A DNA stretch of 64,000 bases from the NCBI RefSeq assembly GCF_016862075.1, contig NZ_BOMG01000019.1:1-64000 (forward strand), in the 5' to 3' direction. Positions 15,671 through 47,160 of this stretch are shown piece by piece. A program made the position numbers and the translations under genes. The notes beneath the pieces were generated by a model that ran no database searches, had not been told where the DNA came from, and worked only from the letters and a program-made list of their open reading frames with translations. Numbering within the stretch: the first letter of the stretch is position 1; each line of letters opens with the position of its first letter. Origin of the DNA: Actinoplanes couchii (lineage in GTDB: Bacteria > Actinomycetota > Actinomycetes > Mycobacteriales > Micromonosporaceae).

Positions 15671-15687
15671 CGAGCCTCCCCGTCAGG

Positions 15688-17783: not shown

Positions 17784-17892
17784 CGTACGCCTACCGGAAC
17801 GGTCCCGTGGCCACCCGCGAGGTGGTCCCGGGACCGGGTGTCCCCGCGACCGCCGGGCCGATGGCGATGGTCCGGCTTCAAGAAAACCGGGC

Positions 17893-18549: not shown

Positions 18550-18566
18550 ACCCTGGACACTGCCCG

Positions 18567-24416: not shown

Positions 24417-24438
24417 GGCGGGCTCTCCCGGGCTCTCG

Positions 24439-25932
24439 TTACTGGTGGTGGCGGATGGCGGCGTACTTCTCGCGGCCGGGAGCGACGACCAGGAACTGGC
24501 CCATCATCCCCTCGACCTCGTGCCGCAGGACGTGGCAGTGGTACATGTACGGGGTGTTCTCGTCGGCGTTGCCGGAGAACTCGACGAGCAGCCGGAAACG
24601 GACGCCCATCGGCAGGTTGATCGTGTCCTTCCAGCCGGCCAGCTCGGCCGGCGGCGGATCACCGTCCACGTCGAGCACCCGGAAACGCTGACCGTGCAGG
24701 TGGAAGATGTGCGGCATCAGGTGTGTGCTGTGGACCGTCCAGATCTCCCTGGTGCCGGCGACCGCCACCAGGTCGGTGCGGTGCATGTCCATGCTCTTGT
24801 CGTTGATGGTGCGCTGGTAGAACTCGAACGACCGTTCGTGGGCGGCGCCGGTCGGATCCGGTGGCGGCAGATCGGACAGCACCGGCGGCAGCGGCGGGCT
24901 CGGTGTCAGGGTGGCCGCGGCCCGCAGCTCCAGCACGTCGAACGAGTCCATGCCGCCTTCGAAGCGCCGGACCAGGAGGTTCTCGCCGGGTGACGGAGCC
25001 AGACTGCGTAGCGTCAGGCGTTCACCGGGCCGTACCGGCACCACGATGTCGGCGCGTTCCCCGGCCGCGAGCCGGATCCGGGTGCGCGCCACCGGCGCCG
25101 CGAGCAGGCCTCCGTCGGTGCTGATCACCTGGAACCCGCGGTCGCCGGCCTCATGATCACTGACGAGGCCGAATTCGTACGGCCGCCCGGCCGAGCCGTT
25201 GAGCAGCCGCAGCCGGACCAGACTGGTACGGACCTCGCGGTACGGGCCGATCACGCCGTTGACCAGCAGCGTGTCGCCGAGCACGCCGATGTCGCTGCTG
25301 AAGTCGGGCCGGGTCCGGAACTGTCCGCGCCTGTCGAACTCCCGGTCCTGCACGATCACCGGCAGGTCGTCGACGCCGTACTCGTGGGGGAGTCCCGCGG
25401 TCCGCGGATCGTCGTCGTCGATCAGGAACATCCCGGCCAGCCCGCGCATCACCTGGTCCTCGGTGTGCCCGTCCGGGTGCGGGTGGTACCAGAGGGTGGC
25501 CGCCGGCTGGTCGACGGTCCACCGCATGTCGGCGGTGCGGCCGGCCCGGATCGGCCGGTGCGGGCCGCCGTCCACCGCAGCCGGCAGGATCGCGCCGTGC
25601 CAGTGGACGGTGCTGTCCTGCTCCAGGTCGTTGCGGACCCGGACCCGGATCCGCTCGCCCCGTTTCACCCGCAGCGTCGGCCCCAGGTAGGTGCCGTTGT
25701 ACCCGGCCGTGCGGGTCCCGCCGTGACCGAAGTCGGTCACCCCGCCGGCGGCGGTCAGGTCGAAGGTCCGGAACCCGTCCACCACCGTCGACGGCGCGAG
25801 CGGCGGGATCGCCAGCTTCCGGTCGAAGGCCACCCGCCCGACCGTCGACAGTGGCGGCCGGTCCGTGTACCAGACGGCGGCGCCGGCCAGCAGCGCCAGG
25901 ACCAGCCAGATCTTCCACAGCCGGCGTTTCAC
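24439..25932 (-). CDS. Multicopper oxidase (phenoxazinone synthase/CotA-like)
   Basis: A 497-residue enzyme with all four copper motifs: [36 protein letters not shown] and [19 protein letters not shown]. The N-terminus is a hydrophobic anchor or signal ([15 protein letters not shown]), so it probably acts at or outside the membrane. The residue after the copper ligands is Met (GMMGQF), as expected for a type 1 site with an axial ligand. In this operon it most likely performs an oxidative coupling or ring oxidation on the pathway product. The GTG at 25932 overlaps the thioesterase stop; sequence upstream of it is a shadow frame. Confidence 0.88.
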
Positions 25933-26711
25933 GGGATCCCGGCCGGCAGCAGATCGGCGGCGGCCAGATCCGCGCGGATCGCGGCCGTCACCGCGGCCGG
26001 CGCGTCCCGGTGGTAGAAGTGGTCGCCGTCGAACATCCGCAGCCGGAACGGCCCGGTGGTGGACTCCCGCCACCGGGCCACCTGCTCCTCGGTGGCCACC
26101 GGGTCCTGCCGGCCGTGGTAGGCGACCACCGGGCAGGACAGCCCCGGCTCCGGCCCGGTCCGGTACGTCTCGGTCAGCCCGTAGTCGGCCCGCAACATCG
26201 GCACGAACGACTCCAGCAGCCGGCGCCGCAGCCCGGTGCCGGCCGCGGTGCCGCCGAGCGCGATCAGGTGGTCGAGGAACTGTTCGGTCGGCAGCAGGTG
26301 CAGCGACGACTGCCGGGACTGCTGCGGGGCCTGCCGTCCGGAGGCGAGCAGCACCGCCGGCCCGGGGCGACCTTCCACGATCAACTGCTTGGCCGTCTCG
26401 TACGCCAGCAGAGAGCCCAGACTGTGGCCGAAGAAGGCGTACGGCCGGTCCAGGTACGGGGCCAGCGCCGCGCTCAGTTCCCGGACCAGCGGGCCGAGCC
26501 GGGTCCGGGGCTCCTCCCGCAGCCGGGACTCGCGGCCGGGCAGCACGATCGGGCAGACCTGCACGTCCGGGCCGAGTGCCTCGCGCCACGGGAGGAAGAA
26601 CCGGGCCCCGCCGCCGGCGTGCGCGAAACAGAACAGCCGGACGGCGTCACCGGCGGGCGCCGCCCCGGAGATCCAGCGGCCCGGCGCCGCCGGGTTGTCA
26701 GCACTCGGCAC
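25929..26711 (-). CDS. Type II thioesterase (GrsT/RifR family)
   Basis: A 260-residue alpha/beta hydrolase with the type II thioesterase signatures LFCFAHAGGGARFFLPW, the nucleophile elbow FFGHSLGSLLAYE and the terminal HFYHRD histidine. These editing enzymes remove mis-primed or stalled acyl groups from carrier proteins. Two carrier proteins are encoded in the cluster. A GAGGAG lies just upstream of two tandem GTG codons (26714, 26711), and I use the second for its spacing. The gene overlaps the oxidase gene by 4 bp and follows the alpha/beta hydrolase by 10 bp. Confidence 0.88.
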   Translation of the reverse strand: MPSADNPAAPGRWISGAAPAGDAVRLFCFAHAGGGARFFLPWREALGPDVQVCPIVLPGRESRLREEPRTRLGPLVRELSAALAPYLDRPYAFFGHSLGSLLAYETAKQLIVEGRPGPAVLLASGRQAPQQSRQSSLHLLPTEQFLDHLIALGGTAAGTGLRRRLLESFVPMLRADYGLTETYRTGPEPGLSCPVVAYHGRQDPVATEEQVARWRESTTGPFRLRMFDGDHFYHRDAPAAVTAAIRADLAAADLLPAGIP

Positions 26712-26721
26712 CACGGTCTCC

Positions 26722-27522
26722 TCAGGCCAGTCCGGTGACGGCGCGGACCAGGTGATCCGGGCTCTCCAGCGGCAGCAGGTGCCCGGCGCCGGGGATCTTC
26801 TCGAACCGGCCCCGCGGCAGGGTGCGGGACAGTTCCTCGCCGTACGAGCAGGAAATGATCTTGTCGTTCTCCCCGGCCAGGACCACGGCCGGCACGGTGA
26901 CCGTGGCCAGCCCGGGACGCAGGTCCATCCCGCAGGAGATCCGGAAGAACTCGCGGCGCACCGCCGGTTCGACACTCGCGAACAGTTCCCGGTTCAGCTC
27001 GGCGATCGACCGGCCGGCGTCCGGCCCGAGCATCCCGCCGAGCATCCTGCGGCCCAGTGCGGGCCGGCGCAGCGCCCAGGAGAACACCGGGTTGCCCATC
27101 ATCCGCAGCTCACCGGCCGGGGTGTCCTGGCCGTACGCCGCGGTGCCGGCCAGCACCAGGCCACCGAGCCGGCGCTGATCGGCCGCCGCGTACGCCAGCG
27201 CGGTGTAGCCGCCGCCGGAGTGCCCGACGAGGATCGGATCCTCGGCGCCGAACCGGTCCAGCACCTGGCCCAGGTCGGCGCGCAGCCGGTCGAGACTGAC
27301 GCCGTCCCGGCCGGTCGAGGAGCCGCCGTGCCCGCGCAGGTCGAAACTGACCACCCGGTAGCCCAGCACGGCGAGCGGGGTGGCGACCGTGTCCCAGACC
27401 GACCGGGCCCCGCCCCAGCCGTGCACCAGCACCACCGTGCGGCCGGAACCCCCGGTGACGGAGGTGGCCAGCCGGGCGCCGTCGTCGGTCTGCAGCCGCT
27501 CGGCGGTGCCGATGCCGGTCAC
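26722..27522 (-). CDS. Alpha/beta hydrolase
   Basis: A 266-residue hydrolase with oxyanion segment VLVHGWGGARSVWD, nucleophile elbow LVGHSGGGYTALAYA and catalytic His in GAGHLLPLE. It is closest in layout to chloroperoxidase/esterase-type hydrolases, and could act as an esterase, lactonase or off-loading hydrolase. The Baeyer-Villiger enzyme in the same operon makes an ester or lactone, which a hydrolase could then open. This coupling is inference. The gene overlaps the SRPBCC gene by 4 bp. Confidence 0.82.
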   Translation of the reverse strand: MTGIGTAERLQTDDGARLATSVTGGSGRTVVLVHGWGGARSVWDTVATPLAVLGYRVVSFDLRGHGGSSTGRDGVSLDRLRADLGQVLDRFGAEDPILVGHSGGGYTALAYAAADQRRLGGLVLAGTAAYGQDTPAGELRMMGNPVFSWALRRPALGRRMLGGMLGPDAGRSIAELNRELFASVEPAVRREFFRISCGMDLRPGLATVTVPAVVLAGENDKIISCSYGEELSRTLPRGRFEKIPGAGHLLPLESPDHLVRAVTGLA

Positions 27523-30842: not shown

Positions 30843-31829
30843 GTGAGCGGCTTCGCACTCACCGGCTGGGGCATGGCCGTACCGGATCAGGTACGCACCA
30901 GCGTGGAACTGGCCGATCATTTCGGTGTCGACGAGGACTGGATCGTCAGCCGCTGCGGTATCCGGGAGCGGCGGATCGTCGCTCCCGGCGAGACCACCGC
31001 GAGTCTCGCCGTGCTGGCCGGCCGGCGGGCGCTGGAGAAGGCCGGCCTGACCGGCGCCGACATCGCCCACCTGATCGTGGCGACCGCGACGCCCGAGCAG
31101 CCGTCCCCGGCCACCTCGGCGTTCGTCCACCACGAACTGGACATCGCGGGCAGCGCCCACGACGTGAACGCCGAGTGCTCGGGTTTCGTCTACGGCCTGA
31201 TGACCGCGGCGGCCTGGATGGCGCTCGACCCGCGCCCGGTCCTGGTGATCGGCTCGGACACCCACTCGCTCACCGTCGACCCCGACGACCGGGATCTCAG
31301 CATCCTGGTCGGGGACGGCGCCGGCGCGGTGGTGCTGACCCCGACCCCGGCCACCTGGCTGCGGTCCTGGAACCTGGGCGCCGACGGGGCCTGCACCGGC
31401 AGTCTCAAGGTGCCGGCCGGCGGCAGCCGGATGCCGACCACCGAGCAGACGGTCCGGGACGGGCTGCACTTCGCCCGGATCAAGGGCAACGAGATCTACC
31501 TGAACGCGGTCCGGTTCTCGGTGCGCTCGATCCGGGAGACCCTCGCCTCGGGCAAACGGGAGGCCGGCGAGATCGACCACTTCGTGCCGCACCAGGCGAA
31601 CATCCGGATCATCAACTCGATCATGTCGCACACCGGGCTGCCGCCCGAGCGCCTGATCACCAACCTGGAGCGGTTCGGCAACACCGCGTCGGCGTCGGTG
31701 CCGATCGCCCTGACCGAGGCCCTGGACGCCGGCCGGATCAGCGACGGCGACCGGGTGCTGCTGGCCGGCTTCGGCGCCGGCATGACCTGGGGCTCGATGC
31801 TCCTCGACTGGGGTGGGGTCACGAGATGA
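30843..31829 (+). CDS. 3-oxoacyl-ACP synthase III (FabH-like)
   Basis: A 328-residue thiolase-fold condensing enzyme. The catalytic triad is visible: Cys112 in NAECSGFVYG, His in FVPHQANIRI and Asn in NLERFGNTASAS. KAS III enzymes usually start chains by condensing an acyl-CoA with malonyl-ACP, and cluster versions can take unusual starters. The GTG at 30843 lies two bases after the ACP stop, and the 3' end overlaps the SDR ATG (ATGA). The role here is probably priming of the acyl chain or of an aminoacyl/pyrrolyl starter. Confidence 0.9.
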   Translation: MSGFALTGWGMAVPDQVRTSVELADHFGVDEDWIVSRCGIRERRIVAPGETTASLAVLAGRRALEKAGLTGADIAHLIVATATPEQPSPATSAFVHHELDIAGSAHDVNAECSGFVYGLMTAAAWMALDPRPVLVIGSDTHSLTVDPDDRDLSILVGDGAGAVVLTPTPATWLRSWNLGADGACTGSLKVPAGGSRMPTTEQTVRDGLHFARIKGNEIYLNAVRFSVRSIRETLASGKREAGEIDHFVPHQANIRIINSIMSHTGLPPERLITNLERFGNTASASVPIALTEALDAGRISDGDRVLLAGFGAGMTWGSMLLDWGGVTR

Positions 31830-37496: not shown

Positions 37497-38720
37497 ATGA
37501 CCGTGTCCGAGGGATGGCAGCGCCTCGAGCCGAAGCTGAACGCCATCCGGACCAGGCTGAGCGCACTCGAGTACGAGCCCGATCGCCGGCACAGCTTCCT
37601 GCCGTTCACCCACGAGCAGGACAGCCCGTACGTCGACTTCGAGGGCTCGCGCTACCTGATGATGTCCGGCTACAGCTACCTCGGCCTGGCCGGCGACCCG
37701 CGGGTCAAGGCCGCGGCCAAGGCGGCTGTCGACCAGTACGGCACCGGCGCCCACGGCGTGCGCGCCCTGGCCGGATCCCTGCCCCTGCACGAGGAGCTGG
37801 AGACCGCGGTCGCCCGGACGATGGGCCGCGAGGCCGCCATGGTGTTCGGCTCCGGCTACGCGGCGAACGTCGGCACCGTCGGCGCCCTGGTCGGGCCGGG
37901 CGACACCGTCCTGATCGACAAGCTCGACCACGCCAGCATCGTGGACGGCTGCCAGCTCAGCGGCGCCACCGTCACCCGGTTCCGGCACAACGACCCGGAG
38001 CACCTGGACCGGCGGCTCGCCGACGCCAAGGGCACCGGCCTGAAGCTGGTCATCGTGGACAGCGTCTACTCGATGGACGGCGATGTCGCGCCGCTGCCCG
38101 AGCTGCGCGCGGTCTGTGACGCACACGGCGCGCTGCTGATGGTCGACGAGGCGCACGCCCTCGGCGTCATCGGCGCTACCGGCCGCGGCATCGAGGAACA
38201 CTTCGGCGGCCGGGCCCTGGTCGACGTGAAGCTCGGCACCCTCTCCAAGGCGGTGCCCGCCACCGGCGGCTGGGTGGCCGGCCCGCAGGCGCTCATCGAC
38301 CACCTGCGGTTCAACGCCCGGCCGTTCCTGTTCTCCGCGGCGCTGGCCCCGGCCCAGGCCGGCGCGGCCCTGGAGACGCTGCGCATCCTGGACGCCGAAC
38401 CGCACCGGGTCACCCACATCCAGCGCGAGTCGGCCCGGCTGCGGGAGACGCTGAACAAGGCCGGCATCGACACCGGCACCAGCGAGACCGCCGTCATCCC
38501 GATCATCGCGGGCTCCGACGAGAAGGCGTACGACCTGGCCACCGCCTGCCGCAAGGCCGGCGTGATCGGTCTGCCGGTGGTCTCCCCGGCGGTGCCGAAC
38601 ACCCAGGCCCGGCTCCGGATCGCGGTCACCGCCCGGCACTCGGCGCAGGACCTCGACGTGGCCGCCGCGGGCTTCCTGGAGGCCGCCCACGCGGTCGACC
38701 TGATCCCGAGCCTTCCGTGA
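37497..38720 (+). CDS. Alpha-oxoamine synthase (PLP-dependent acyltransferase, AONS/SPT-like)
   Basis: A 407-residue fold-type I PLP enzyme that condenses an acyl thioester with an amino acid, losing CO2, to give an alpha-amino ketone. The PLP lysine is Lys251 in LGTLSKAVPATGG, the cofactor Asp is in MVDEAHALGVIG (residues 216-224), and the substrate segment GTGAHGVRALAGSLPLHEELE is conserved. A GGAGGAG precedes the ATG. It heads the long operon behind SARP box C and is coupled to the KAS II gene. In prodigiosin-type pathways a related domain (C-terminus of PigH) builds a second pyrrole ring, which is a useful analogy here. Confidence 0.88.
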   Translation: MTVSEGWQRLEPKLNAIRTRLSALEYEPDRRHSFLPFTHEQDSPYVDFEGSRYLMMSGYSYLGLAGDPRVKAAAKAAVDQYGTGAHGVRALAGSLPLHEELETAVARTMGREAAMVFGSGYAANVGTVGALVGPGDTVLIDKLDHASIVDGCQLSGATVTRFRHNDPEHLDRRLADAKGTGLKLVIVDSVYSMDGDVAPLPELRAVCDAHGALLMVDEAHALGVIGATGRGIEEHFGGRALVDVKLGTLSKAVPATGGWVAGPQALIDHLRFNARPFLFSAALAPAQAGAALETLRILDAEPHRVTHIQRESARLRETLNKAGIDTGTSETAVIPIIAGSDEKAYDLATACRKAGVIGLPVVSPAVPNTQARLRIAVTARHSAQDLDVAAAGFLEAAHAVDLIPSLP

Positions 38721-39946
38721 GCGTCGCCGCCGACGTGGTCGTCACCGGGATGGGCGTGGTCAGCCCGGCCGGCTGCGACCTCGCCGGGTTCTGGCCGGCG
38801 CTGCTGGCCGGGCGTTCGCTGGCCGCGCCGGTGACCACTTTCGACACCAGCCGGCACAAGGCCCGGATCGGCTGTCAGGTGGCCGGCTTCGAGCAGCACG
38901 AGCACCTGGGCGCGAAGGAGGCCCGGCGGATGGACCCGTTCGCCAGGTACGCCCTCGCCGCGGCCCTCAGCGCGCACACCCACGCCGGGGCCCCCACGGT
39001 GGACGTCACCCGTACCGCCGTGGTGGTCGGCAACGCCGTCGGCGGGCGGACCGTCAGCGATCAGGAGAGCCGCAACCACGACGTGCACGGCCCGGCCCGG
39101 GTCAACCCGCTGATGCCGCTGATGACGATGCCGAACGCCGCCGCCGCGCTGATCTCGATGCGGCTGGGCTGGCGGGGACCGGCGACCACGATCGCGAACA
39201 CCTGCGCCAGCGGGGCGGACGCGATCGGGCACGCCGCGCTGCTGCTGCGCACCGGGCAGGCCGACATCGTGCTGGCCGGTGGCGCCGAGGCCACGCTGAC
39301 CCCGGTCACCATGGCCGCGTTCGGCAACCTCGGCGCGGTCTCCGCACGCAACGACGACCCGGCCGCCGCGGCCCGCCCGTTCGACGTGGACCGGGACGGG
39401 TTCGTGATGGGCGAGGGCGCGGCCTTCGTGGTGCTGGAGCGCCGGGCCGACGCCGCCGCCCGCGGGGCCACCGCGCACGCGGTGGTCAGCGGGTACGCCT
39501 CCGGATCGGACGCCTACCACCTGTCCATGCCGCGGGCCGGCGGGGACGGCGCGGCCGCGGTGATGACCGCCGCGATCACCGCCGCCGGGCTGCGGCCGGA
39601 CGACATCCGGCACGTCAACGCGCACGGCACCGCGACCCCGCACAACGACCGGGCCGAGGCCCGCGCCCTGCACACCGTGTTCGGCGCGGACCAGCCGCCG
39701 GTCACCTCGCTCAAGGGCACCATCGGCCACCTGATCGGCGCGGCCGGCGCGGTGGAGTTCGTCGCCACCGTGCTCGCGCTGCGGCACGGCCTGGTGCCCC
39801 CGACCGCCAATCACCAGAAGACGGAGCCTGGAATGGATCTCGACGTGGTCGCCGGAGCGGCGCGGGTGGTACCCGCCGGACCGGCGCTGAGCAACTCGTT
39901 CGGGTTCGGCGGGCACAACGCCGCGCTCGTGGTGAGCCCCGCATGA
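38717..39946 (+). CDS. 3-oxoacyl-ACP synthase II (FabF-like ketosynthase)
   Basis: A 409-residue ketosynthase with the intact Cys-His-His triad: Cys163 in IANTCASGADAIGHAA, His in VNAHGTATPHND and His in LKGTIGHLIGAAGA. It extends acyl thioesters with malonyl-ACP. The GTG at 38717 overlaps the upstream stop and the 3' end overlaps the MaoC gene, so the three are translationally coupled. No chain-length-factor partner is present, which argues against a typical aromatic type II polyketide system and for a FAS-like or PigJ-like extension step. Confidence 0.9.
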   Translation: MSVAADVVVTGMGVVSPAGCDLAGFWPALLAGRSLAAPVTTFDTSRHKARIGCQVAGFEQHEHLGAKEARRMDPFARYALAAALSAHTHAGAPTVDVTRTAVVVGNAVGGRTVSDQESRNHDVHGPARVNPLMPLMTMPNAAAALISMRLGWRGPATTIANTCASGADAIGHAALLLRTGQADIVLAGGAEATLTPVTMAAFGNLGAVSARNDDPAAAARPFDVDRDGFVMGEGAAFVVLERRADAAARGATAHAVVSGYASGSDAYHLSMPRAGGDGAAAVMTAAITAAGLRPDDIRHVNAHGTATPHNDRAEARALHTVFGADQPPVTSLKGTIGHLIGAAGAVEFVATVLALRHGLVPPTANHQKTEPGMDLDVVAGAARVVPAGPALSNSFGFGGHNAALVVSPA

Positions 39947-40713
39947 GCGCGCTTGTCGCCTACCGTGCTGCGGTCCGGGCGCCGATCGGGCCGGCCGCCG
40001 TGCCCGGGCCGTCGCCGGTGCACCCCTTCGTGCTGTCCACCACCGAGTTCGAACAGACCACCCGGCGGATCGGCGGGACCGGCGCCCAGGTGCACGTCAG
40101 CCAGGAGTTCGCGGTGCACCGGCTGCTGCGCGAGGGCGAGACGGCGAGCACCGGGCTGGAGGTCGTCGGCGCCCGCAAGGAGGGCCGCGGGGTCCGGCTG
40201 GGGCTGCGCGCCGAGGTCCGCGGCGACGGCGGCGACCCGGTCTGCGCGATGGTCACCACGGTCCTGCTGACCGGCGCCACCGCCCCGGAGCCGTTCGGCG
40301 CGATGCCGCCGCTCACCGCGCCGGCCGGTTCCGGCCCCGGCGAACCGGTCACCCGGACCGTGACGCTGACCAGGGCGGACATCGCCCGGTACGCGGAGGC
40401 GTCCGGCGACCTCAACCCGATCCACCTGGACGACGAGGCGGCCCGCGCCGCCGGGTTCGATCGCGTGATCGCCCACGGCATGAACGTGGTGGCCCTGGTC
40501 ACCGAGCTCGCCGCCGACCTGTTCGCGGCCGGCGACCCGGCCCGGGTCCGCGCGGTGGGCTGCCGGTTCTCCGCGCCGGTCCACCCGGACGAGCCGGTCG
40601 AGGTCACCTTCCGGCCGGACACCGCCGGCACGGTGGTGGCGTTCACCTGCGCGACCCCGCGCGGGATCGCGCTCAAGGGCGGCTGGGTCACCCTGGGAGC
40701 CGGCGATGACTGA
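39943..40713 (+). CDS. MaoC-like 3-hydroxyacyl dehydratase (double hot-dog)
   Basis: A 256-residue protein. The C-terminal half is a MaoC/R-hydratase hot-dog with the catalytic segment YAEASGDLNPIHLDDEAARAAGFDRVIAHGM (Asp and His of the dyad). The N-terminal half is a degenerate hot-dog like that of actinobacterial FAS II dehydratases. It probably dehydrates the 3-hydroxyacyl-ACP made by the SDR. Overlaps of 4 bp with KAS II and 8 bp with the adenylation gene show tight coupling. Confidence 0.87.
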   Translation: MSALVAYRAAVRAPIGPAAVPGPSPVHPFVLSTTEFEQTTRRIGGTGAQVHVSQEFAVHRLLREGETASTGLEVVGARKEGRGVRLGLRAEVRGDGGDPVCAMVTTVLLTGATAPEPFGAMPPLTAPAGSGPGEPVTRTVTLTRADIARYAEASGDLNPIHLDDEAARAAGFDRVIAHGMNVVALVTELAADLFAAGDPARVRAVGCRFSAPVHPDEPVEVTFRPDTAGTVVAFTCATPRGIALKGGWVTLGAGDD

Positions 40714-42187
40714 CCCGTCACCCCGGCCGGACGTTCCGGCGGTGGCCGCCGCGTTCCTGGAGCACGCCCGGCGTGACCCGGGCGCGCCGGCGCTGGCCTG
40801 GGCGGACCGGGAGATCTCCTACGGCGAACTCGCCGCCCTGGCCGCCGGGCAGCGGCCCCTACTGGACCGGCTCGGGCCGGACGAACCGGTCGGTGTCCTG
40901 GCCGCCAAGTCGCCGGGCGCCCTGGCGCTGGTCCTGGCCTGCCTGCTCACCGGGCGGCGCTTCCTGCTGCCGTCGCCGTCGCTGGCCGCGGAGACCCTGG
41001 ACACCCTGTTCGACCAGGCCGGCTGCCGGACGATCGTGCGCGAGGAGGACCTGCTGCCGCCCGCCGGCGAGGTCACCTGGCCGGCGGTCGACCCGGACTC
41101 CATCGGCTTCATGCTGACCACCTCCGGGTCGACCGGGCTGCCGAAGATCGTGCCGCTGCCGCACCGGGCCGTCGACGCGTTCGCCGCCTGGGCGGCCGGG
41201 ACCTTCCGGATCGGGCCGGGCCGGTCGGTGTTCAGCTACGCGCCGCTCAACTTCGACCTGTGCCTGCTCGACGTGTGGACCACCCTGGCGTACGGCGGCC
41301 GGGTGGTGCTCGCCGACACCGCCCGCGCGGCGCACGGCGGATACCTGGCGGACCTGCTGCGCCGGTACCCGGTGGACGTGATCCAGGGCGTGCCGATGCT
41401 GTACAACCTGTTGCTGGACTCCGGGGCGATCGGTTTCGCCGGGGTGTCGCACGTGCTCGTCACCGGGGACGTGATCGGCGCGGACACCCTCGCCGCGCTG
41501 CCCTGGCTGTTCCCCGGCGCGCGCCTGCACAACGTGTACGGCTGCACCGAGACCAACGACAGCCTGATCGCCGAACTGGAGCCCGGGCGGTCCGGTCCGG
41601 CGCCGCTCGGCGTGCCGCTGCCCGGCGTGGACGTGCTGCTCCTGGACTCCGGCGGGCAGCCGGTCGACGGCCCCGGAACCGGCGAGCTGTACGTCACCAC
41701 CCCCTTCCAGAGCGGCGGTTACCTGGACGCGGCCCGCAGCGCCGGGAAGTTCACCGGGCACCCGCTCGGGTCCGACGACCGGCAGTGGTTCCGCAGCGGC
41801 GACCTGGTCCGGCGGGACTCCGGCGGCTCGCTGGCCCTGATCGGCCGGACCGACTTCCAGATCAAGATCCGCGGTACGGCGATCAACACCGCCGAGGTCG
41901 AGTCGGTGCTCCGTGAGTGCGACGGGGTGCTGGACGCGGCCGTGCTGACCTCTACCGACCCGGTGGCCGGCCGTCAACTGGCCGCGGTGCTGACCCGGGT
42001 GCCGGGCAGCGCCGTCAACAGCCTGACGGTGCGCCTGCACTGCGCCGCCCACCTGCCCAAGGCCGCCGTCCCGTCGACTCTGCGGATCGTGGACGTCCCG
42101 CTGCCCCGGACCTCCACCGGGAAGCTGGACCGCTCCGCAGCCGAAGAACTGCTGACCCCCGAACCGATTCCCGGAAGGACGTCATGA
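40706..42187 (+). CDS. Stand-alone amino acid adenylation enzyme (prolyl-AMP ligase-like)
   Basis: A 493-residue ANL-family ligase that activates an amino acid and loads it onto the adjacent PCP. Core motifs are A3 (LTTSGSTGLPK), A5 (NVYGCTETND), A7/A8 (SGDLVRR, GRTDFQIKIRG) and A10 (PRTSTGKLDR, with the catalytic Lys). In the A4 region NFDLCLLDVW the Asp that holds the alpha-amino group is present, so an alpha-amino acid is expected rather than an aryl acid. The first specificity positions read Asp-Leu-Leu, as in free-standing prolyl ligases of pyrrole pathways (RedM/PltF type); the later positions differ. Proline is therefore the favoured but unproven substrate. Confidence 0.82.
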   Translation: MTDPSPRPDVPAVAAAFLEHARRDPGAPALAWADREISYGELAALAAGQRPLLDRLGPDEPVGVLAAKSPGALALVLACLLTGRRFLLPSPSLAAETLDTLFDQAGCRTIVREEDLLPPAGEVTWPAVDPDSIGFMLTTSGSTGLPKIVPLPHRAVDAFAAWAAGTFRIGPGRSVFSYAPLNFDLCLLDVWTTLAYGGRVVLADTARAAHGGYLADLLRRYPVDVIQGVPMLYNLLLDSGAIGFAGVSHVLVTGDVIGADTLAALPWLFPGARLHNVYGCTETNDSLIAELEPGRSGPAPLGVPLPGVDVLLLDSGGQPVDGPGTGELYVTTPFQSGGYLDAARSAGKFTGHPLGSDDRQWFRSGDLVRRDSGGSLALIGRTDFQIKIRGTAINTAEVESVLRECDGVLDAAVLTSTDPVAGRQLAAVLTRVPGSAVNSLTVRLHCAAHLPKAAVPSTLRIVDVPLPRTSTGKLDRSAAEELLTPEPIPGRTS

Positions 42188-42447
42188 CAAACATCGACAC
42201 GATTCGGCAGTTCGTTCTCGAGGAGTTCCTCCCGGACGTGCCCGCCGACCAGCTGGCGAACGACCTGGACCTGATGGAGAGCGGTGTCGTCGACAGCCTG
42301 GGCGTGCTCAAGCTGATCGCCTGGGTGGAGGACCGCTTCGAGGTGGTCGTCGACGACACCGAGCTGAACCCGGACAACTTCCGGTCGGTGCTGGCCATCG
42401 ACGCCTTCGTCACCCGCGCCGCCGTCTCCGCGGTCGGGGGGCGTTAG
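42184..42447 (+). CDS. Peptidyl carrier protein (PigG/PltL-like)
   Basis: An 87-residue carrier with the phosphopantetheine serine in MESGVVDSLGVLKLIAWVEDRF (Ser38). The tail DDTELNPDNFRSVLAIDAFV is the layout seen in small carriers that partner with prolyl-AMP ligases and with dehydrogenases of pyrrole biosynthesis. The ATG overlaps the ligase stop (ATGA), so ligase and carrier are made together. It should present the aminoacyl thioester to the acyl-CoA dehydrogenase homologue at 44.6-45.8 kb. Confidence 0.87.
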   Translation: MTNIDTIRQFVLEEFLPDVPADQLANDLDLMESGVVDSLGVLKLIAWVEDRFEVVVDDTELNPDNFRSVLAIDAFVTRAAVSAVGGR

Positions 42448-42451
42448 CACC

Positions 42452-43447
42452 GTGCACCCCACCGTCGAGCTGTTGTTGCAGCGCCGTGCCGAGGTGAGCC
42501 GCGAGTCGTGGGACGCCCTCTGGGACGCGCTGCGGGACCGGAGCCTGGACCGCGACGACGCGCTGGCCCTGCTGGGTTCGCTGGCCGGCGCGCTGCCCGG
42601 CCCGGTGTCGTCGGCCGCGCTGCTGGAGTCGTTCGCCGGCCGCCGCGCCACCGGGCCGGAACGGCGGCCCGGCACGGTCAACGTGGTGGGCACCGGCGGT
42701 GGACCGGCGACCTTCAACATCTCCACCGCCGCCGCCTTCACCGCGGCGGCGATCGGGGTGCCGGTGGTGAAGTCGGGCTCCCGGGCGTACACCGGCGTGC
42801 TCGGGTCGATCGACCTGCTGGAGCGCCTCGGCATCCGGCCGGCCGGCTCGTACCCGCAGATCGAGGACTCTCTCGACCGGTTCGGGCTGGCCTTCGCCGG
42901 TGGCTTCGTCTACCCGGCCGAGCTGACCCGGCTGGCCCGCCTGATCCTGCCCGCCGGGCTGCGGCCGTTCGGCCGGTTCCTCAACACGCTGGGCCCGTTC
43001 CTGGCCGAGCTGCCGGTCACCGCCCAGGTCACCGGCGTCTCCGACCCGGCCGTGCTGCCGCTGCTGCGCGACCTCGCGGCCACCGTGCCGGACCGGCGGA
43101 TCTGGCTGTCCACCAACGACGCCGGGGCCGACGAGCTGCTGCCGTTCGCGGTGAACACCGTCGACACGAACTCCGGGACGGTGCCGGCGCTCCCGGCGCC
43201 GTCCGGGGGCACCCTCGCCGACCTCCGCCCGGGCACCGGCCCGGCCGGTGCGGCGGCCCGATTCCTGGAGGTCGTCGCCGGGTCCGCCGGGGACGTCGCG
43301 ACCCGGACGGTGGCGTTCAACGCGGCGGCGCTCGCCCTGGCCGGCGGGCACGCCACCGCCTGGGAACCGGCGGTCGCCGAGGCCGGGAAGGCGCTGCGCG
43401 AGGGCGCGGTCCTGGCCCTGGTCATGCGGATGCGCACCGATGGCTGA
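42452..43447 (+). CDS. Anthranilate phosphoribosyltransferase-like protein, divergent (TrpD family)
   Basis: A 331-residue class IV phosphoribosyltransferase. The PRPP site is recognisable (VNVVGTGGGPATFNISTAAA, GSIDLLERLGI) and so is a metal-binding Asp-Glu pair (GADELLP). However the usual KHGNR motif reads KSGSR (residues 107-111), so the His and Asn that contact anthranilate are lost. The downstream RT(I/L)FNxLGP motif reads GRFLNTLGP with the Arg displaced. It probably still attaches phosphoribose to an amine, but maybe not to anthranilate. The GTG at 42452 is 4 bp after the PCP stop, and the gene overlaps the TrpA-like gene by 8 bp. Confidence 0.8.
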   Translation: MHPTVELLLQRRAEVSRESWDALWDALRDRSLDRDDALALLGSLAGALPGPVSSAALLESFAGRRATGPERRPGTVNVVGTGGGPATFNISTAAAFTAAAIGVPVVKSGSRAYTGVLGSIDLLERLGIRPAGSYPQIEDSLDRFGLAFAGGFVYPAELTRLARLILPAGLRPFGRFLNTLGPFLAELPVTAQVTGVSDPAVLPLLRDLAATVPDRRIWLSTNDAGADELLPFAVNTVDTNSGTVPALPAPSGGTLADLRPGTGPAGAAARFLEVVAGSAGDVATRTVAFNAAALALAGGHATAWEPAVAEAGKALREGAVLALVMRMRTDG

Positions 43448-44246
43448 CTTCTTCGCGGGCGGTCCCGGGCTGGCCCTGTTCCTGAACGCCGGTGACCCGC
43501 CGCTGGACGTGCTGCGGGACGCGGTCCTCGCCCTGGACGAGGCCGGGCTCGCCTGCCTGGAGCTGGCCGTGCCGTTCCCCGGTTCGGTCACCGACGGGCC
43601 GGTGATCAGGCGGTCGGCGGAGCGGGCGCTGCGCGCGGGTGTCGACCTGGACGCGGTGCTGGACTTCGTCGCCGGCATCCGGCCGCGGCTGCGGACCACC
43701 CGGATCGCGCTGCTGGCCGACTGGAGCCACAGCCTGAAGGGGCATCCGCTGCCGGACATGCTCGACCGGATCGCCGGGTCCGGCGCCGACGGTGTGCTGC
43801 TGCACGCGCTGCCGCCCCGGCTGCGGCAGTCGTACCACGCGTCGGCGCGGGCGGCCGGACTGCCCGTCGTCACCACCTGTTACCACGGCACCTCCCGTCC
43901 CGAGGTGCTGGCCGAGGCGGCCGCGGAAGCCACCGCGTACGTCTACCTCGTCGCCCGTTACGGCCGCAGCGGCACCGCGCCCGCAGCCGGATACGGCGAC
44001 CTGAACGTGTCCGTCGCAGCGTTGCGCACGGGTACCCGGGCACCGATCGCCGTCGGCTTCGGTGTCCGGAACAGCCAGGACGTGGCGGCCGTACGCGCCA
44101 CCGGGGCCGACGGCGTGATCGTCGGCAGCGCCGGTGTCGCCCGGGTCGAAACGGCTCTGGCCGAGGGCCGGGACGTCGTACCCGTACTGCGGGAACTCGT
44201 CCTGGACCTTGATCCCCTCCACCATCGGAACAGGAGTCTCACGTGA
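43440..44246 (+). CDS. Tryptophan synthase alpha chain-like / indole-3-glycerol-phosphate lyase (TrpA family)
   Basis: A 268-residue TIM barrel. The two TrpA catalytic acids are conserved with normal spacing: Glu41 (LELAVPF) and Asp52 (VTDGPVI). The phosphate-binding end (APIAVGFGVRNSQDV, GVIVGSAGV) is also present. There is no TrpB in the cluster, so it may work alone as a retro-aldolase that releases a free indole-like heterocycle and glyceraldehyde 3-phosphate, as plant BX1/IGL enzymes do. The loop that contacts TrpB is altered (YGRSGTAPAAGYGD). The ATG at 43440 overlaps the trpD-like gene. Confidence 0.82.
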   Translation: MADFFAGGPGLALFLNAGDPPLDVLRDAVLALDEAGLACLELAVPFPGSVTDGPVIRRSAERALRAGVDLDAVLDFVAGIRPRLRTTRIALLADWSHSLKGHPLPDMLDRIAGSGADGVLLHALPPRLRQSYHASARAAGLPVVTTCYHGTSRPEVLAEAAAEATAYVYLVARYGRSGTAPAAGYGDLNVSVAALRTGTRAPIAVGFGVRNSQDVAAVRATGADGVIVGSAGVARVETALAEGRDVVPVLRELVLDLDPLHHRNRSLT

Positions 44247-44617
44247 TCATCAGGAACCTGGAGAACGTCAAGACCGTCGAGTGGGGCAACGGCGTCAGCC
44301 GCCGTTTCCTGCTGGAGAACGACCGGATCGGTTACAGCATCACCGACACGGTGGTCCGGGCCGGCACGAAGTCGCTGCTGGAGTACCGCAACCACATGGA
44401 GTCCTGCTACTGCATCGCGGGCTCCGGCGAGGTCGTCGACATGCAGGGCAACTCGCACCCGATCGTCCCGGGCACGCTCTACGCCCTCGACCAGCACGAC
44501 GCGCACTACCTGGTGGCGAGCCCGCACGAGGATCTCCGCCTGGTCTGCGTGTTCACCCCCGCGCTGCGGGGCGACGAGGTGCACGACCTCGACGGCAGCA
44601 GCTCCAGCCACTACTGA
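44243..44617 (+). CDS. Ectoine synthase-like cupin (EctC family)
   Basis: A 124-residue cupin clearly of the EctC family: RNHMESCYCIAGSGEVVDM and PGTLYALDQHDAHYLVASPHEDLRLVCVFTPALRGDEVHDLDG. The metal ligands of EctC are kept at Glu53, Tyr80 and His88. The TTIYAGTETHIHYKNH-type substrate wall of true EctC reads DTVVRAGTKSLLEYRNH, so the substrate differs. No ectA, ectB or ectD is present. It sits between the trpA-like and dehydrogenase genes with overlap, so it is a pathway enzyme, probably a cyclodehydratase that closes a ring or cyclic amidine. The GTG at 44243 follows AGGAG. Confidence 0.88.
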   Translation: MIIRNLENVKTVEWGNGVSRRFLLENDRIGYSITDTVVRAGTKSLLEYRNHMESCYCIAGSGEVVDMQGNSHPIVPGTLYALDQHDAHYLVASPHEDLRLVCVFTPALRGDEVHDLDGSSSSHY

Positions 44618-44638
44618 CGCACACACCCCGGGGTCATC

Positions 44639-45778
44639 ATGATCGAATGGAACGACGACCAGGTCGCTCTCCGCGACGGCCTGGGCCGCTGGAACGACGC
44701 CCTCAGCTCCGGTCACGTCGAAGGTGACGCGGCCGGGACGTTCGACTGGGACAAGTGGAAGCTGATCCGGGACACCGGAGTCCTGGGCCTGCCGTTCGGC
44801 ACCGACTGGAACGGCCTGGACCAGGACCTGCTCACCACCATGTACGTCCTGGAAGGTCTCGGCGAGGGCTGCCGGGACGGTGGCCTGAGCTTCTCGGCGA
44901 CCACCAGCATGGCCAGCGTCGGCGTTCCCCTGCAGAAGTTCGGCCGCCCGGAACTGCGCGACAGGCACCTGCCGCGGATCTGTTCCGGCGAGTCGATCGG
45001 AGCCCACGCCATCACCGAGGCGGACGGTGGCTCCGACGCGCTGAAGATGCGAACCCGGGCCGAACGCGACGGCGACGATTTTGTCCTCACCGGCGCCAAG
45101 ACGTTCGTGAGCAACGGCCCGATCGCAGATCTGATCATGGTTTACGCCCGCTCCCACCCCGGTGGTGGTGCTCTGGGGGTGACCGCGTTCCTGGTGGAAC
45201 GGGACACTCCCGGCCTGAGCGTGGGCGGTCCCTTCCACAAGATGGGACTGCGCACGTCGCCGCTGAGCGAGATCTTCCTGGACGGCTGCCGCGTCCCGGC
45301 CGCCAACGTGGTCGGCCGGATCGGCGGCGGCTTCATGGTCCTGGACCACGTGATGAAACGGGAGATCCTGTTCACCTTCATCGTCCAGGTGGGCGAGATG
45401 GCCCATCGCCTCCAACGGTGTGTCGGGTACGCCCGCACCCGCATGCAGTTCGGTAGGCCGATCGGCGCCAACCAGTCGATCTCCAACAAGATCGTGGACA
45501 TGAAGGTCCGCCTGGAGACCGCCCGCAAGTGGCTCTACGACACCGCCGAGAAGCTCGAGCGCGGCCAGGACGTCACCGCCGACATCGCGATCGCGAAGCT
45601 GCTCACCAGTCAGGCCAACGTCGCCTCCGGCCTGGACGCGGTGCAGATCTTCGGCGGCAACGGCTACATGGCCGAGTACGGCCTGGAGAAGGATCTGCGC
45701 AACGCCGTCGGCGCGACCATCTACTCCGGTACCAACGAGATCCAGTACAACCGCATCGCTGCGACGCTGGGGCTATGA
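44639..45778 (+). CDS. Acyl-CoA dehydrogenase-like, probable aminoacyl(prolyl)-PCP dehydrogenase
   Basis: A 379-residue FAD enzyme of the acyl-CoA dehydrogenase fold. The C-terminal catalytic position of standard dehydrogenases (IYEGT) reads IYSGT, but a Glu is present at position 242 in the helix-G segment MKREILF, the site used by isovaleryl-CoA dehydrogenase and by prolyl-PCP dehydrogenases (PigA/PltE type). QSISNKIVDMKVRLETARKWLY is also like that group. With the adenylation enzyme and PCP it should oxidise prolyl-PCP to pyrrole-2-carboxyl-PCP. It follows the EctC-like gene by 21 bp and overlaps the trpF-like gene. Confidence 0.85.
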   Translation: MIEWNDDQVALRDGLGRWNDALSSGHVEGDAAGTFDWDKWKLIRDTGVLGLPFGTDWNGLDQDLLTTMYVLEGLGEGCRDGGLSFSATTSMASVGVPLQKFGRPELRDRHLPRICSGESIGAHAITEADGGSDALKMRTRAERDGDDFVLTGAKTFVSNGPIADLIMVYARSHPGGGALGVTAFLVERDTPGLSVGGPFHKMGLRTSPLSEIFLDGCRVPAANVVGRIGGGFMVLDHVMKREILFTFIVQVGEMAHRLQRCVGYARTRMQFGRPIGANQSISNKIVDMKVRLETARKWLYDTAEKLERGQDVTADIAIAKLLTSQANVASGLDAVQIFGGNGYMAEYGLEKDLRNAVGATIYSGTNEIQYNRIAATLGL

Positions 45779-46470
45779 GCACCGGCCGGCAGGGTGCCCT
45801 GCTCAAAGTGTGCGGCGCGACCTCGGCCGCCGAGGTGCGGCTGCTCGCGGCCTCCGGCGCCGACTACGTCGGGCTCTGGTACGGCGTGTCCGGCGGCCCG
45901 GCCGACCTGTCCCTGGACCGGCTCGTGGAGCTGGCCGGGGTGGCCCGCGACGCCGGGATCAACCCGGTGCTCGTCACCTTCCTCGGCGCCGTCGACGCCC
46001 TGCATCAGGCGCTCACGCTCTCCGGGATCCGGCACCTGCAACTGCACGCCTACCAGACGCCGGGGGCGGTCGCCGCGCTGCGCCGCGCCCATCCCGGCCT
46101 GTCCGTCCTCAAGGTGCTGCACCTACGGGACGGGCAGTGCCTGGAGGACCGGTTCATCGGCGCCTACCAGCGGGCCGGGACCAGCATGTTCCTGCTCGAC
46201 AAGACCACCGCGACCGGGCGGGTCGGCAGCACCGGCCACCGGCTGGACCCGGCCGAGGTGCGCGCCCTGATGCCGCGCCTGGACGTCCCGTTCCTGCTGG
46301 CCGGGGGAGTGTCCGCGGACAGTGGCGGCTACCACGACCTGATCGGTGGCCCCAGCCTGCACGGTGTCGACGTCGACACCGGCGCCCGCGACACCCTCGG
46401 CGGCTTCGACCCCGGGCTGATCGGTGCGATCGCCCGGGCCTGGCAAACCGTTCCCGAGCCGCTGAGGTGA
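45775..46470 (+). CDS. Phosphoribosylanthranilate isomerase-like (TrpF family)
   Basis: A 231-residue TIM barrel that performs an Amadori rearrangement of an N-phosphoribosyl amine. Both catalytic residues are in place: Cys13 (LKVCGAT) and Asp142 (FLLDKTT). The phosphate site PFLLAGGVSAD and GVDVDTGARD is also normal. TrpF is usually about 200-220 residues, so size is ordinary. The ATG at 45775 overlaps the dehydrogenase stop. Its presence with TrpD and TrpC homologues indicates that an N-phosphoribosyl intermediate is really processed in this pathway. Confidence 0.88.
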   Translation: MSTGRQGALLKVCGATSAAEVRLLAASGADYVGLWYGVSGGPADLSLDRLVELAGVARDAGINPVLVTFLGAVDALHQALTLSGIRHLQLHAYQTPGAVAALRRAHPGLSVLKVLHLRDGQCLEDRFIGAYQRAGTSMFLLDKTTATGRVGSTGHRLDPAEVRALMPRLDVPFLLAGGVSADSGGYHDLIGGPSLHGVDVDTGARDTLGGFDPGLIGAIARAWQTVPEPLR

Positions 46471-46473
46471 CCC

Positions 46474-47160
46474 TTGTCCGGATTCCTGTCCACGCTGCTG
46501 ACCGCCGACCTCCCGCTGATCATGGAGATCAAGCCGCGTGATCCGGACGGCACCGATCTGCTCGGCGGCCGCAGCGCGGCGGAGGTGGTGGACACCTACG
46601 AGGCGGCCGGCGCGCCCTGCCTCTCGGTGGTCACCGGGCACTGGTTCGGCGGGTCACCGGACCTGCTGCGCGAGGTGACCCGGCGGACCACCCGGCCGGT
46701 CCTGCAGAAGGACTTCGTCACCCGGCGGGACCAGCTGGCCACCGCCCGGGACCTGGGCGCGTCGGCGGTCCTGCTGACCGCCGGCCTGCTGCCCGCCGCG
46801 GTGCTGGCCCGGATGGTGACCGCCGCGCTCTCCGCGGGCCTGACGCCGTTCGTCGAGGTCACCACCGAGCGGGAGATCGCCGCGGTGCCGCACGCCGCCG
46901 AGTGCGTGCTGGCGGTCAACAACAAGGACATCAAGATCCGCGAGCGGGGTACGGCGGAACTCACCCGTAGCACCGCCCTGTTGCCGGCTCTACGGGCCGC
47001 CGGGACGCTCTGCCCGGTGAGCGCCAGCGGCATCCACGACGCGGCGGTCGCCGCCGACCTGCTCGGACAGGGCTTCGCCGGGCTGCTGATCGGCACCTCA
47101 CTGCTGCGCAGCACCGATGTCACGGCGTGGGCCGCCGACGTCCGGAACCGGTACCGCTGA
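46474..47160 (+). CDS. Indole-3-glycerol-phosphate synthase-like (TrpC family)
   Basis: A 228-residue TIM barrel, slightly shorter than the usual 250-270 because the N-terminal helices are reduced. The catalytic set is recognisable: Glu18 and Lys20 (IMEIKPRDP), Lys79 (LQKDF), Glu128 (PFVEVTTE), Asn149/150 (AVNNKDI) and Ser in PVSASGI, where the usual SESGI Glu is Ala. The CLSVVTGHWF segment lacks the acid normally found after LT. It should catalyse decarboxylative ring closure to a pyrrole. TTG at 46474, with GAGGTGA upstream, seems the start. It is the last gene of the core operon. Confidence 0.85.
   Translation: MSGFLSTLLTADLPLIMEIKPRDPDGTDLLGGRSAAEVVDTYEAAGAPCLSVVTGHWFGGSPDLLREVTRRTTRPVLQKDFVTRRDQLATARDLGASAVLLTAGLLPAAVLARMVTAALSAGLTPFVEVTTEREIAAVPHAAECVLAVNNKDIKIRERGTAELTRSTALLPALRAAGTLCPVSASGIHDAAVAADLLGQGFAGLLIGTSLLRSTDVTAWAADVRNRYR

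What the first reader, a model, noticed from the sequence alone, without database searches (positions are those of the whole stretch)
42452..47160. A TrpD-TrpF-TrpC-TrpA set without TrpB, TrpE or TrpG inside a biosynthetic operon
Seen: homologues of four tryptophan enzymes (TrpD, TrpA, TrpF, TrpC) lie in one operon interleaved with an EctC-like cupin and an acyl-CoA dehydrogenase homologue. Catalytic residues of TrpA (Glu41, Asp52), TrpF (Cys13, Asp142) and most of TrpC are kept. Known: together these steps add two ribose carbons to an amine and its neighbouring carbon, close a pyrrole ring with loss of CO2, and TrpA removes glyceraldehyde 3-phosphate. Inference: without TrpB the set would release a free indole, or, if the starting amine is different, would annulate a pyrrole on another scaffold. 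That would be a new use of primary tryptophan chemistry.
Basis: partly seen in the sequence, partly recalled or inferred. Interest (0 to 1): 0.93.

Follow-up and report, generated by a model that had tools for sequence, protein, structure and literature searches.

The report
Borrowed tryptophan enzymes building pyrrolopyrrole
A gene cluster in an actinomycete carries altered copies of four tryptophan-making enzymes next to a carrier protein, its loading enzyme, an ectoine-synthase relative and a dehydrogenase; together they are predicted to build an indole-like double ring (a pyrrolopyrrole), likely from glutamine and ribose, by a kind of chemistry proposed before for the antibiotic kosinostatin.

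Summary
TrpD, TrpA, EctC-like, acyl-CoA-dehydrogenase-like, TrpF and TrpC genes lie in one operon at 42452-47160; no TrpB, TrpE or TrpG was found in the window, and the genome keeps trpE, C, B, A and D elsewhere. The true unit is larger: A domain-ACP-TrpD-TrpA-EctC-ACAD-TrpF-TrpC. Of 80 loci found with TrpC, 64 hold all eight genes, 61 in the same order and strand. The cassette also lies in the kosinostatin producer Micromonospora okii TP-A0468, where pyrrole + PRPP to pyrrolopyrrole was already proposed (Ma et al. 2013, as cited); a TrpF-homologue knock-out in another producer abolishes kosinostatin. So the principle is known. The window has AONS-KS-MaoC instead of a type II PKS, so it is another cluster class. 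New here: a family-wide TrpC signature (Glu210 to Ala, 83 of 83), an A-domain code with Asp235 in 71 of 71, which argues against the published nicotinate entry, and a conserved EctC iron site. I infer glutamine to cyclic amidine to aminopyrrole-ACP to pyrrolo[2,3-b]pyrrole-ACP. Some relatives add TrpB2 and UbiD. No chemistry was tested. Free indole is disfavoured; annulation on another scaffold is supported but not new in kind.

The parts
40706..42187 (+). stand-alone adenylation (A) domain, code D-L-L-Q-L-T-V-D-S
   Evidence: AMP-binding; code positions assigned by me from motifs (GrsA numbering recalled; alignment); Asp235/Gln278/Asp330/Ser331 in 71 of 71 rows
42184..42447 (+). acyl/peptidyl carrier protein, 87 aa, DSL serine motif
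   Evidence: PP-binding Pfam match, start and motif
42452..43447 (+). TrpD homologue (phosphoribosyltransferase)
   Evidence: PF00591; TIGR01245 under its cut-off; PRPP and Mg ligands kept
43440..44246 (+). TrpA homologue
   Evidence: TIGR00262 over its cut-off; Glu49/Asp60 equivalents kept in 72 of 72
44243..44617 (+). EctC (ectoine synthase) homologue, the only PF06339 match in the genome
   Evidence: PF06339 and NF009806 over cut-off; iron ligands kept in 76 of 76
44639..45778 (+). acyl-CoA-dehydrogenase-fold enzyme nearest to prolyl-carrier dehydrogenases PigA/RedW
   Evidence: NCBIfam PigA 358 bits, RedW 355 bits, both under their cut-offs
45775..46470 (+). TrpF homologue
   Evidence: PF00697; fold search; Cys7/Asp126 equivalents in 80 of 80
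46474..47160 (+). TrpC homologue without the usual N-terminal segment
   Evidence: PF00218; fold search; signature residues
37497..38720 (+). AONS (BioF/KBL-type alpha-oxoamine synthase)
   Evidence: TIGR00858 389 bits, under cut-off
38717..39946 (+). FabF-like ketosynthase
   Evidence: NF005589 over cut-off; NTCAS motif
39943..40713 (+). MaoC-type dehydratase
   Evidence: PF01575
33878..37282 (-). SARP-type regulator (BTAD + AAA)
   Evidence: Pfam
30843..31829 (+). KASIII, probable wider cluster
   Evidence: Pfam; 74% identical to the homologue in L093
31835..32566 (+). SDR (FabG-like), probable wider cluster
   Evidence: Pfam; 71% identical to the homologue in L093
28027..29529 (-). FAD-dependent oxidoreductase, probable wider cluster
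   Evidence: Pfam; 67% identical in L093
29539..30423 (-). CMAS-type methyltransferase, probable wider cluster
   Evidence: Pfam; 70% identical in L093
47291..47947 (+). hemerythrin-domain protein
   Evidence: PF01814; 49% identical in L093
49353..50033 (-). 4'-phosphopantetheinyl transferase (start at GTG 50033 is my choice)
   Evidence: PF17837 and PF01648

Best explanation
The eight genes from 40706 to 47160 encode an A domain, a carrier protein, TrpD, TrpA, an EctC relative, a dehydrogenase, TrpF and TrpC, which together likely build a carrier-bound pyrrolo[2,3-b]pyrrole from glutamine and phosphoribosyl pyrophosphate. Proposed route, every chemical step inferred: (1) EctC closes glutamine, free or as Gln-S-ACP, to the cyclic amidine 5-amino-3,4-dihydro-2H-pyrrole-2-carboxyl (ADPC); the A domain loads Gln or ADPC on the ACP. 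(2) The PigA/RedW-like flavoenzyme removes 2 H and gives 5-aminopyrrole-2-carboxyl-S-ACP, an aromatic amine standing in for anthranilate. (3) TrpD puts phosphoribosyl on the exocyclic amine, TrpF does the Amadori rearrangement, TrpC closes the second pyrrole on the free, electron-rich neighbouring carbon with loss of water and no CO2, and TrpA removes glyceraldehyde 3-phosphate. (4) In this cluster the acyl group would pass to the KS/MaoC/AONS set, much as pyrrolyl-carrier does in prodigiosin-type bipyrrole assembly; other clusters would pass it to a type II PKS, an NRPS condensation domain, or TrpB2 plus UbiD.
For: Unit: of 80 loci found with TrpC, 64 hold all eight genes, 61 of them in the same order and strand. 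Same cassette in the kosinostatin producer M. okii TP-A0468 (L088, 46-68% identity per protein), where kst genes are said to make pyrrole + PRPP into pyrrolopyrrole (PMC7918784 Table 5, passage) and a TrpF-homologue knock-out in another producer abolishes the product (PMC13099267). Own trp genes elsewhere. TrpC clade separate from housekeeping. Catalytic residues kept: TrpC Glu51/Lys53/Lys110/Glu159 83 of 83, TrpA Glu49/Asp60 72 of 72, TrpF Cys7/Asp126 80 of 80, TrpD PRPP/Mg residues Asn117, Ser119, Lys135, Asp251, Glu252 73 of 73; substrate side changed: TrpC Glu210 to Ala 83 of 83, Arg182 to Lys 81 of 83, TrpD Asn138 (polar contact to the anthranilate carboxylate, PMC9835598 passage) to Ser/Ala 73 of 73. 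EctC Trp21, Arg25, Thr40, Tyr52, Glu57, Tyr84, His92, Phe106 76 of 76; Asn38, which touches the free carboxylate, never Asn (roles from PMC6344544 passages). H. elongata EctC makes ADPC from glutamine as a side reaction (PMC6344544). A code has Asp235 in 71 of 71, kosinostatin included. The only EctC in the genome is this one. IGPS can close a substrate without the carboxylate, weakly (PMC7681013 abstract). Nonomuraea L095 has A, ACP, EctC, ACAD without TrpD/A/F/C in 32 kb, as expected if EctC/ACAD act as a separable first half.
Against: No product or enzyme assay. Published work gives nicotinic acid and ribose as precursors of the kosinostatin pyrrolopyrrole (PMC5321127 and PMC7918784 passages); I could not read Ma et al. 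2013 and its feeding or assay data may outweigh a sequence argument; its delta-kstB7 strain, a gene outside my eight, had reduced kosinostatin (PMC7918784). The A-domain code matches no code I can name: its D-L-L resembles proline codes (recalled), so Gln, ADPC or Pro all remain open. Alanine at Glu219 (= Glu210) abolishes M. tuberculosis IGPS (PMC10591298), so this TrpC must work differently or do something else; and without the carboxylate PaIGPS is 41,000-fold less efficient (PMC7681013 passage). L046 has no EctC and L053 no TrpA within their loci. The carboxylate-anchoring Arg of TrpD (R193) and TrpF (R36, recalled) could not be judged: the alignment fails there for TrpD, and 11 of 80 TrpF rows have Arg. 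The AONS branch and the final product are guesses from gene content.
Confidence: 0.6

Rival explanations
1. Nicotinate entry (published kosinostatin model): the A domain loads nicotinic acid, the kstB-type enzymes contract it to a pyrrole, and TrpD/F/C/A fuse the second ring.
For: Stated for kst in PMC7918784 Table 5 and PMC5321127 (passages), resting on Ma et al. 2013, which I did not see. Deletion of kstB7, the proposed deformylase, reduced kosinostatin (PMC7918784).
Against: Asp235 in 71 of 71 cassette A domains, whereas the DhbE/MxcE code linked to nicotinate incorporation reads PLPAQGVVNK (PMC8400222 passage). None of the eight conserved genes is an obvious ring-contraction enzyme. kstB7 is missing from another producer's cluster, its nearest homologue lying almost 1 Mb away (PMC7918784). 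It gives EctC no clear role.
Confidence: 0.2
2. Proline entry: the A domain loads proline, the PigA/RedW-like enzyme makes pyrrolyl-S-ACP, EctC does something later (for example amidine closure), and the Trp enzymes work on a pyrrole-derived amine.
For: The ACAD is nearest to prolyl-carrier dehydrogenases among NCBIfam models; the A domain matches an L-prolyl-carrier ligase (6o6e) at 138 bits, 11th of the 60 shown of 195 PDB sequences matched, all the better ones being other amino-acid A domains or NRPS; D-L-L start of the code (proline code recalled).
Against: Gln278 and Asp330 are invariant and would be odd beside proline; pyrrolyl-ACP has no exocyclic amine for TrpD; the EctC iron site is fully kept.
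Confidence: 0.13
3. Ordinary TrpD/F/C/A acting on anthranilate, releasing free indole or topping up tryptophan.
For: All four catalytic cores are kept apart from TrpC Glu210.
Against: TrpC Glu210 to Ala in 83 of 83 and TrpD Asn138 to Ser/Ala in 73 of 73; separate TrpC clade; no TrpE/TrpG in the window; trp genes elsewhere; regular company of A domain, ACP, EctC.
Confidence: 0.04

Closest known systems
Kosinostatin (quinocycline) pyrrolopyrrole genes kstB/kstC, Micromonospora sp. TP-A0468 = M. okii
   Same: All eight cassette proteins have homologues in L088 of that strain at 46-68% identity, same order; A-domain code DLLQVTLDS against DLLQLTVDS.
   Different: kst joins the unit to a type II polyketide (PMC8698034, PMC7918784); in the window KS-alpha and CLF queries both match only the one KS beside AONS and MaoC. 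The published entry is nicotinate; I infer glutamine.
Tryptophan operon (TrpD, TrpF, TrpC, TrpA)
   Same: Folds and most catalytic residues; likely reaction order.
   Different: No TrpB/E/G found; TrpC shortened at the N-terminus with Ala for Glu210 and Lys for Arg182; TrpD lacks the Asp of GTGGD and Asn138.
Ectoine synthase EctC
   Same: Iron ligands and most substrate residues kept in 76 of 76.
   Different: Asn38 replaced (Thr in 72 of 76), three-residue insertion after Trp21; it sits inside the cassette, no other PF06339 match in the genome.
Prodigiosin bipyrrole (MBC) assembly: PigI/PigG/PigA, PigJ KS, PigH AONS (pathway recalled)
   Same: A domain, carrier protein, PigA-like dehydrogenase, KS and AONS side by side.
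   Different: Adds EctC and the four Trp enzymes; the NCBIfam prodigiosin models that match (PigA, RedW, PigJ) are under their cut-offs.

Membership tests
kosinostatin-type pyrrolopyrrole cassette | A domain + carrier protein + TrpD/TrpF/TrpC/TrpA homologues matching in order those of the producer M. okii TP-A0468 | tested here: met
   46-68% identity, each match covering at least 92% of the query, same order
kosinostatin-type pyrrolopyrrole cassette | makes a pyrrolopyrrole | not testable with these tools
   No chemistry; in vivo need of the TrpF homologue is published for another strain (PMC13099267)
kosinostatin biosynthetic gene cluster | type II PKS (KS-alpha/CLF) and octose genes | tested here: not met
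   KS-alpha and CLF queries match one and the same place, 38744-39937, at 38% and 36%; that KS is 67% identical to the KS of the AONS class in L093. Octose genes were not searched
tryptophan biosynthesis operon | TrpB, TrpE, TrpG present | tested here: not met
   No match better than E 0.046 in the window
indole-3-glycerol phosphate synthase (functional) | Glu at SsIGPS 210 / MtIGPS 219 and Arg182 | tested here: not met
   Ala in 83 of 83; Lys in 81 of 83, Gly in 2
ectoine synthase (EctC) | iron ligands Glu57, Tyr84, His92 and substrate residues Trp21, Arg25, Thr40, Tyr52 | tested here: met
   76 of 76 rows
ectoine synthase (EctC) | Asn38 (carboxylate contact) | tested here: not met
   Thr 72, Cys 2, Ala 2 of 76
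ectoine synthase (EctC) | ectA and ectB beside it | not tested
   The neighbours given to Pfam were not named EctA or EctB, but neither window nor genome was searched for them
prodigiosin MBC pathway | PigA/PigJ-type enzymes over NCBIfam cut-offs | tested here: not met
   PigA 358 of 500 bits, PigJ 72 of 900

The most novel reading that the evidence does not exclude
A shadow tryptophan pathway exists in which glutamine replaces anthranilate: EctC turns glutamine into a cyclic amidine, a proline-type dehydrogenase makes it an aminopyrrole on a carrier protein, and re-tooled TrpD/F/C/A, with decarboxylation dropped from the TrpC step, build an aza-indole (pyrrolo[2,3-b]pyrrole). Actinomycetes plug this unit into at least four kinds of machinery, including AONS/KS assembly (the window) and, in Actinocrispum and Lentzea, TrpB2 plus UbiD to make an unknown tryptophan analogue. 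The published nicotinate origin of the kosinostatin pyrrolopyrrole would then be wrong.
Probability: 0.4. Interest if true: 0.88.

Novelty: new variant of a known kind. Interest (0 to 1): 0.7.

Why it matters
If right, it gives the bicyclic amidine of kosinostatin a simple origin (glutamine + ribose), shows primary tryptophan chemistry rebuilt on a carrier protein without decarboxylation, and turns a route tied to one rare antibiotic (18 putative carriers of the whole kosinostatin cluster in 34,389 genomes, PMC13099267) into a portable building-block cassette found in dozens of strains here, with uncharacterised products. The eight genes and the expected ACP mass ladder make it directly testable.

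Tried and rejected
Free-indole or tryptophan-supply reading: tested by looking for trp genes elsewhere and by active-site and tree comparison; disfavoured. Nicotinate entry: weighed against the A-domain code, the gene content and KstB7. TrpD R193 and TrpF R36: tried as further signatures and dropped as inconclusive, since the own housekeeping TrpD also fails to place an Arg in that column and 11 of 80 TrpF rows carry Arg. The first partner tally scored 8 loci as type II PKS; four of them (L014, L021, L033, L037) have the window-type KS plus MaoC, so I count 4. The housekeeping rows in the alignment were wrong frames (longest ORF) and were replaced. One TrpB2 reference (L046) was given with wrong coordinates and matched nothing; the right frames were scanned. 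Paper searches on the cassette (several show only the top of a longer list: 10 of 52, 30 of 161, 15 of 18) showed nothing on it outside kosinostatin; all 38 papers naming kosinostatin were listed (titles and abstract starts seen; 5 opened for passages). The library lacks most subscription journals, so absence there proves little. Of 61 genomes of the family searched for IGPS, 4 (own included) have a low-scoring cassette-type copy; the other three were fetched and each holds all eight genes. In one search, 2 of 396 phylum genomes matched; the second (G071) was not examined.
Full report
OBSERVATION. Exact starts: ACP 42184, TrpA 43440, TrpF 45775. TrpF is the weakest by sequence (E 6.7e-7), but its predicted fold has PRAI/TrpF structures (two bifunctional) as the first 12 matches. 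E. coli TrpB, TrpE and TrpG find nothing better than E 0.046 in the window.

GENOME CONTEXT. The genome (11.46 Mb, 199 contigs) has trpE, trpC, trpB, trpA on C24, trpD on C25 and a second trpB-trpA pair on C110. A Pfam TrpF search finds nothing in it, not even the window copy; trpF is regularly missing in Actinomycetota, where PriA does the step, though Nonomuraea and Streptosporangium mostly have one (PMC13055916 abstract and passages). The nearest listed relative of the TrpC, the own copy aside, is in Actinoplanes derwentensis (89%). The genome has one EctC, this one.

THE UNIT. The protein search gave 843 TrpC relatives at E 0.001 or better; the 120 listed are 61-100% identical. A scan of named genomes with a TrpC alignment confirmed 90 places and kept the best 80 loci. 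Within them I looked for the window's neighbours: A domain in 68 of 80, ACP 70, TrpD 70, TrpA 71, EctC 71, ACAD 74, TrpF 76. All eight genes are together in 64 of 80, 61 of them in the same order and strand. Of 71 loci with at least 8 kb upstream, 9 lack one or more genes (L030, L042, L046, L053, L055, L058, L075, L080, L083). With four further loci from plasmid records (L093-L096) the count is 67 of 84. In the window's family 4 of 61 genomes have a cassette-type TrpC, and the three besides the own hold all eight genes: sporadic, as for a specialised pathway.

PARTNERS. Of the 84 loci (corrected): 40 have AONS and 4 more the same KS and MaoC without AONS (the window's class); 4 have a type II PKS (L082, L087, L088, L096); 7 have a condensation domain, a condensation-PCP didomain in the member scanned, each with a Glu/Leu-dehydrogenase-like gene, Streptomyces clavuligerus pSCL4 among them; 7 have TrpB2-like and/or UbiD genes; 22 fit none of these within the stretch held, several being short contigs. 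L088 is Micromonospora okii TP-A0468, the kosinostatin producer (PMC8698034 passages). In Actinocrispum wychmicini (L071) and Lentzea (L074) the operon reads A-ACP-TrpD-TrpA-EctC-ACAD-(transglutaminase-like)-TrpB2-TrpF-TrpC-UbiD. The TrpB2 homologues of L046, L071, L074, L080, L083 and L095 score 637-700 bits against a cut-off of 366 for the TrpB-like family. In Nonomuraea gerenzanensis (L095) A, ACP, EctC, ACAD and TrpB2 occur without TrpD/A/F/C in 32 kb. One same-genus genome (L128) combines the cassette with KS-alpha/CLF and UbiD.

ACTIVE SITES (rows are the window plus loci whose match covers at least 85% of the query; the rest of the 84 were dropped). TrpC, 83 rows: Glu51, Lys53, Lys110, Glu159 all kept; Glu210 is Ala in all 83; Arg182 is Lys in 81, Gly in 2. 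Roles: Lys119 acid, Glu168, Glu57 and Glu219 in M. tuberculosis IGPS, where Glu219Ala has no activity (PMC10591298 passages); Arg182 mutation raises Km in SsIGPS (PMC7681013 passage). The window TrpC also starts about 28-39 residues later than the full-length IGPS chains aligned; removing the segment of helix alpha-0 raises Km in other IGPS (PMC7681013). An opened site would suit a carrier-bound substrate (inference). TrpD, 73 rows: PRPP and Mg residues kept, Asp of GTGGD deleted in all, Asn138 to Ser/Ala in all; Asn138 and Arg193 hold the anthranilate carboxylate (PMC9835598); Arg193 could not be placed. TrpF, 80 rows: Cys7 and Asp126 kept. TrpA, 72 rows: Glu49, Asp60, Tyr175 kept. EctC, 76 rows: iron ligands Glu57, Tyr84, His92 and Trp21, Arg25, Thr40, Tyr52, Phe106 kept, Asn38 lost. 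A domain, 71 rows at 80% coverage: Asp235, Gln278, Asp330, Ser331 in all; I assigned these positions from motifs, with GrsA numbering recalled. The TrpC tree puts 33 cassette rows (the window and 32 chosen of the 84 loci) on one side and 31 housekeeping rows on the other, 100/100; it warns that long branches meet.

MECHANISM. Shown: gene content, conservation, residues. Inferred: chemistry. EctC of H. elongata is reported to close glutamine to ADPC as a side reaction (PMC6344544 passage). An ADPC-type ring is an amidine analogue of proline, which fits a dehydrogenase nearest to prolyl-carrier dehydrogenases; one two-electron oxidation then gives a 2-aminopyrrole. Its exocyclic amine replaces that of anthranilate, and its free neighbouring carbon is nucleophilic, so TrpC need not decarboxylate; IGPS tolerates a substrate without carboxylate, about 1000 times slower (PMC7681013 abstract). 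This would explain why residues facing the anthranilate half changed while the sugar-phosphate chemistry stayed. The product, pyrrolo[2,3-b]pyrrole, has the N-C-N bridge of a bicyclic amidine.

AGAINST THE PUBLISHED ENTRY. The kst model loads nicotinic acid and converts it to a pyrrole (PMC7918784 Table 5). Aryl-acid A domains lack Asp235 (recalled); the DhbE/MxcE code is PLPAQGVVNK (PMC8400222 passage). The cassette, kosinostatin's included, has Asp235. KstB7, proposed as deformylase, is absent from a second producer's cluster, though its deletion lowered production in the first (PMC7918784). I have not read Ma et al. 2013; its abstract is recalled only, and its feeding data count against me.

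NOVELTY. The principle is published for kosinostatin. Not seen in my searches: the cassette outside kosinostatin, a glutamine/EctC origin, the residue signature, or the TrpB2/UbiD version. Whole kosinostatin clusters are reported as rare, 18 putative carriers in 34,389 genomes (PMC13099267), whereas the cassette is in dozens of strains here. I therefore file it as a new variant of a known kind, with interest in the testable origin.

Noticed in passing
L071, L074, L046 (also L080, L083): Cassette or part-cassette operons with an added TrpB2-like enzyme and a UbiD decarboxylase: predicted route to a tryptophan analogue.
   Followed up: partly
L095 (Nonomuraea gerenzanensis) 12552-19613: A, ACP, EctC, ACAD and TrpB2-like genes without TrpD/A/F/C within 32 kb: perhaps an aminopyrrole-only branch.
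   Followed up: partly
L128 (unnamed same-genus genome) 4-12055: Complete cassette between KS-alpha/CLF genes and a UbiD gene: a further combination of partners.
   Followed up: no
L030 and L055: Lone cassette-type TrpC genes in Streptomyces; no other cassette gene was found in the roughly 20 kb held.
   Followed up: no
own genome contig C110 (L002): A second trpB-trpA pair besides the C24 trp genes.
   Followed up: no
L014: A record titled Rhodococcus rhodnii NRRL B-16535 carries a cluster almost like those of Kibdelosporangium; the strain label may be wrong.
   Followed up: no
window 23286-27522, - strand: SAM synthetase, multicopper oxidase, thioesterase and alpha/beta hydrolase genes that may belong to the same cluster; L093 also has a multicopper oxidase beside its cassette.
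   Followed up: partly
L061 8611-9318, L096 19585-20265 and others: A transglutaminase-like protein sits between ACAD and TrpF in several relatives but was not found in the window; role unknown.
   Followed up: no
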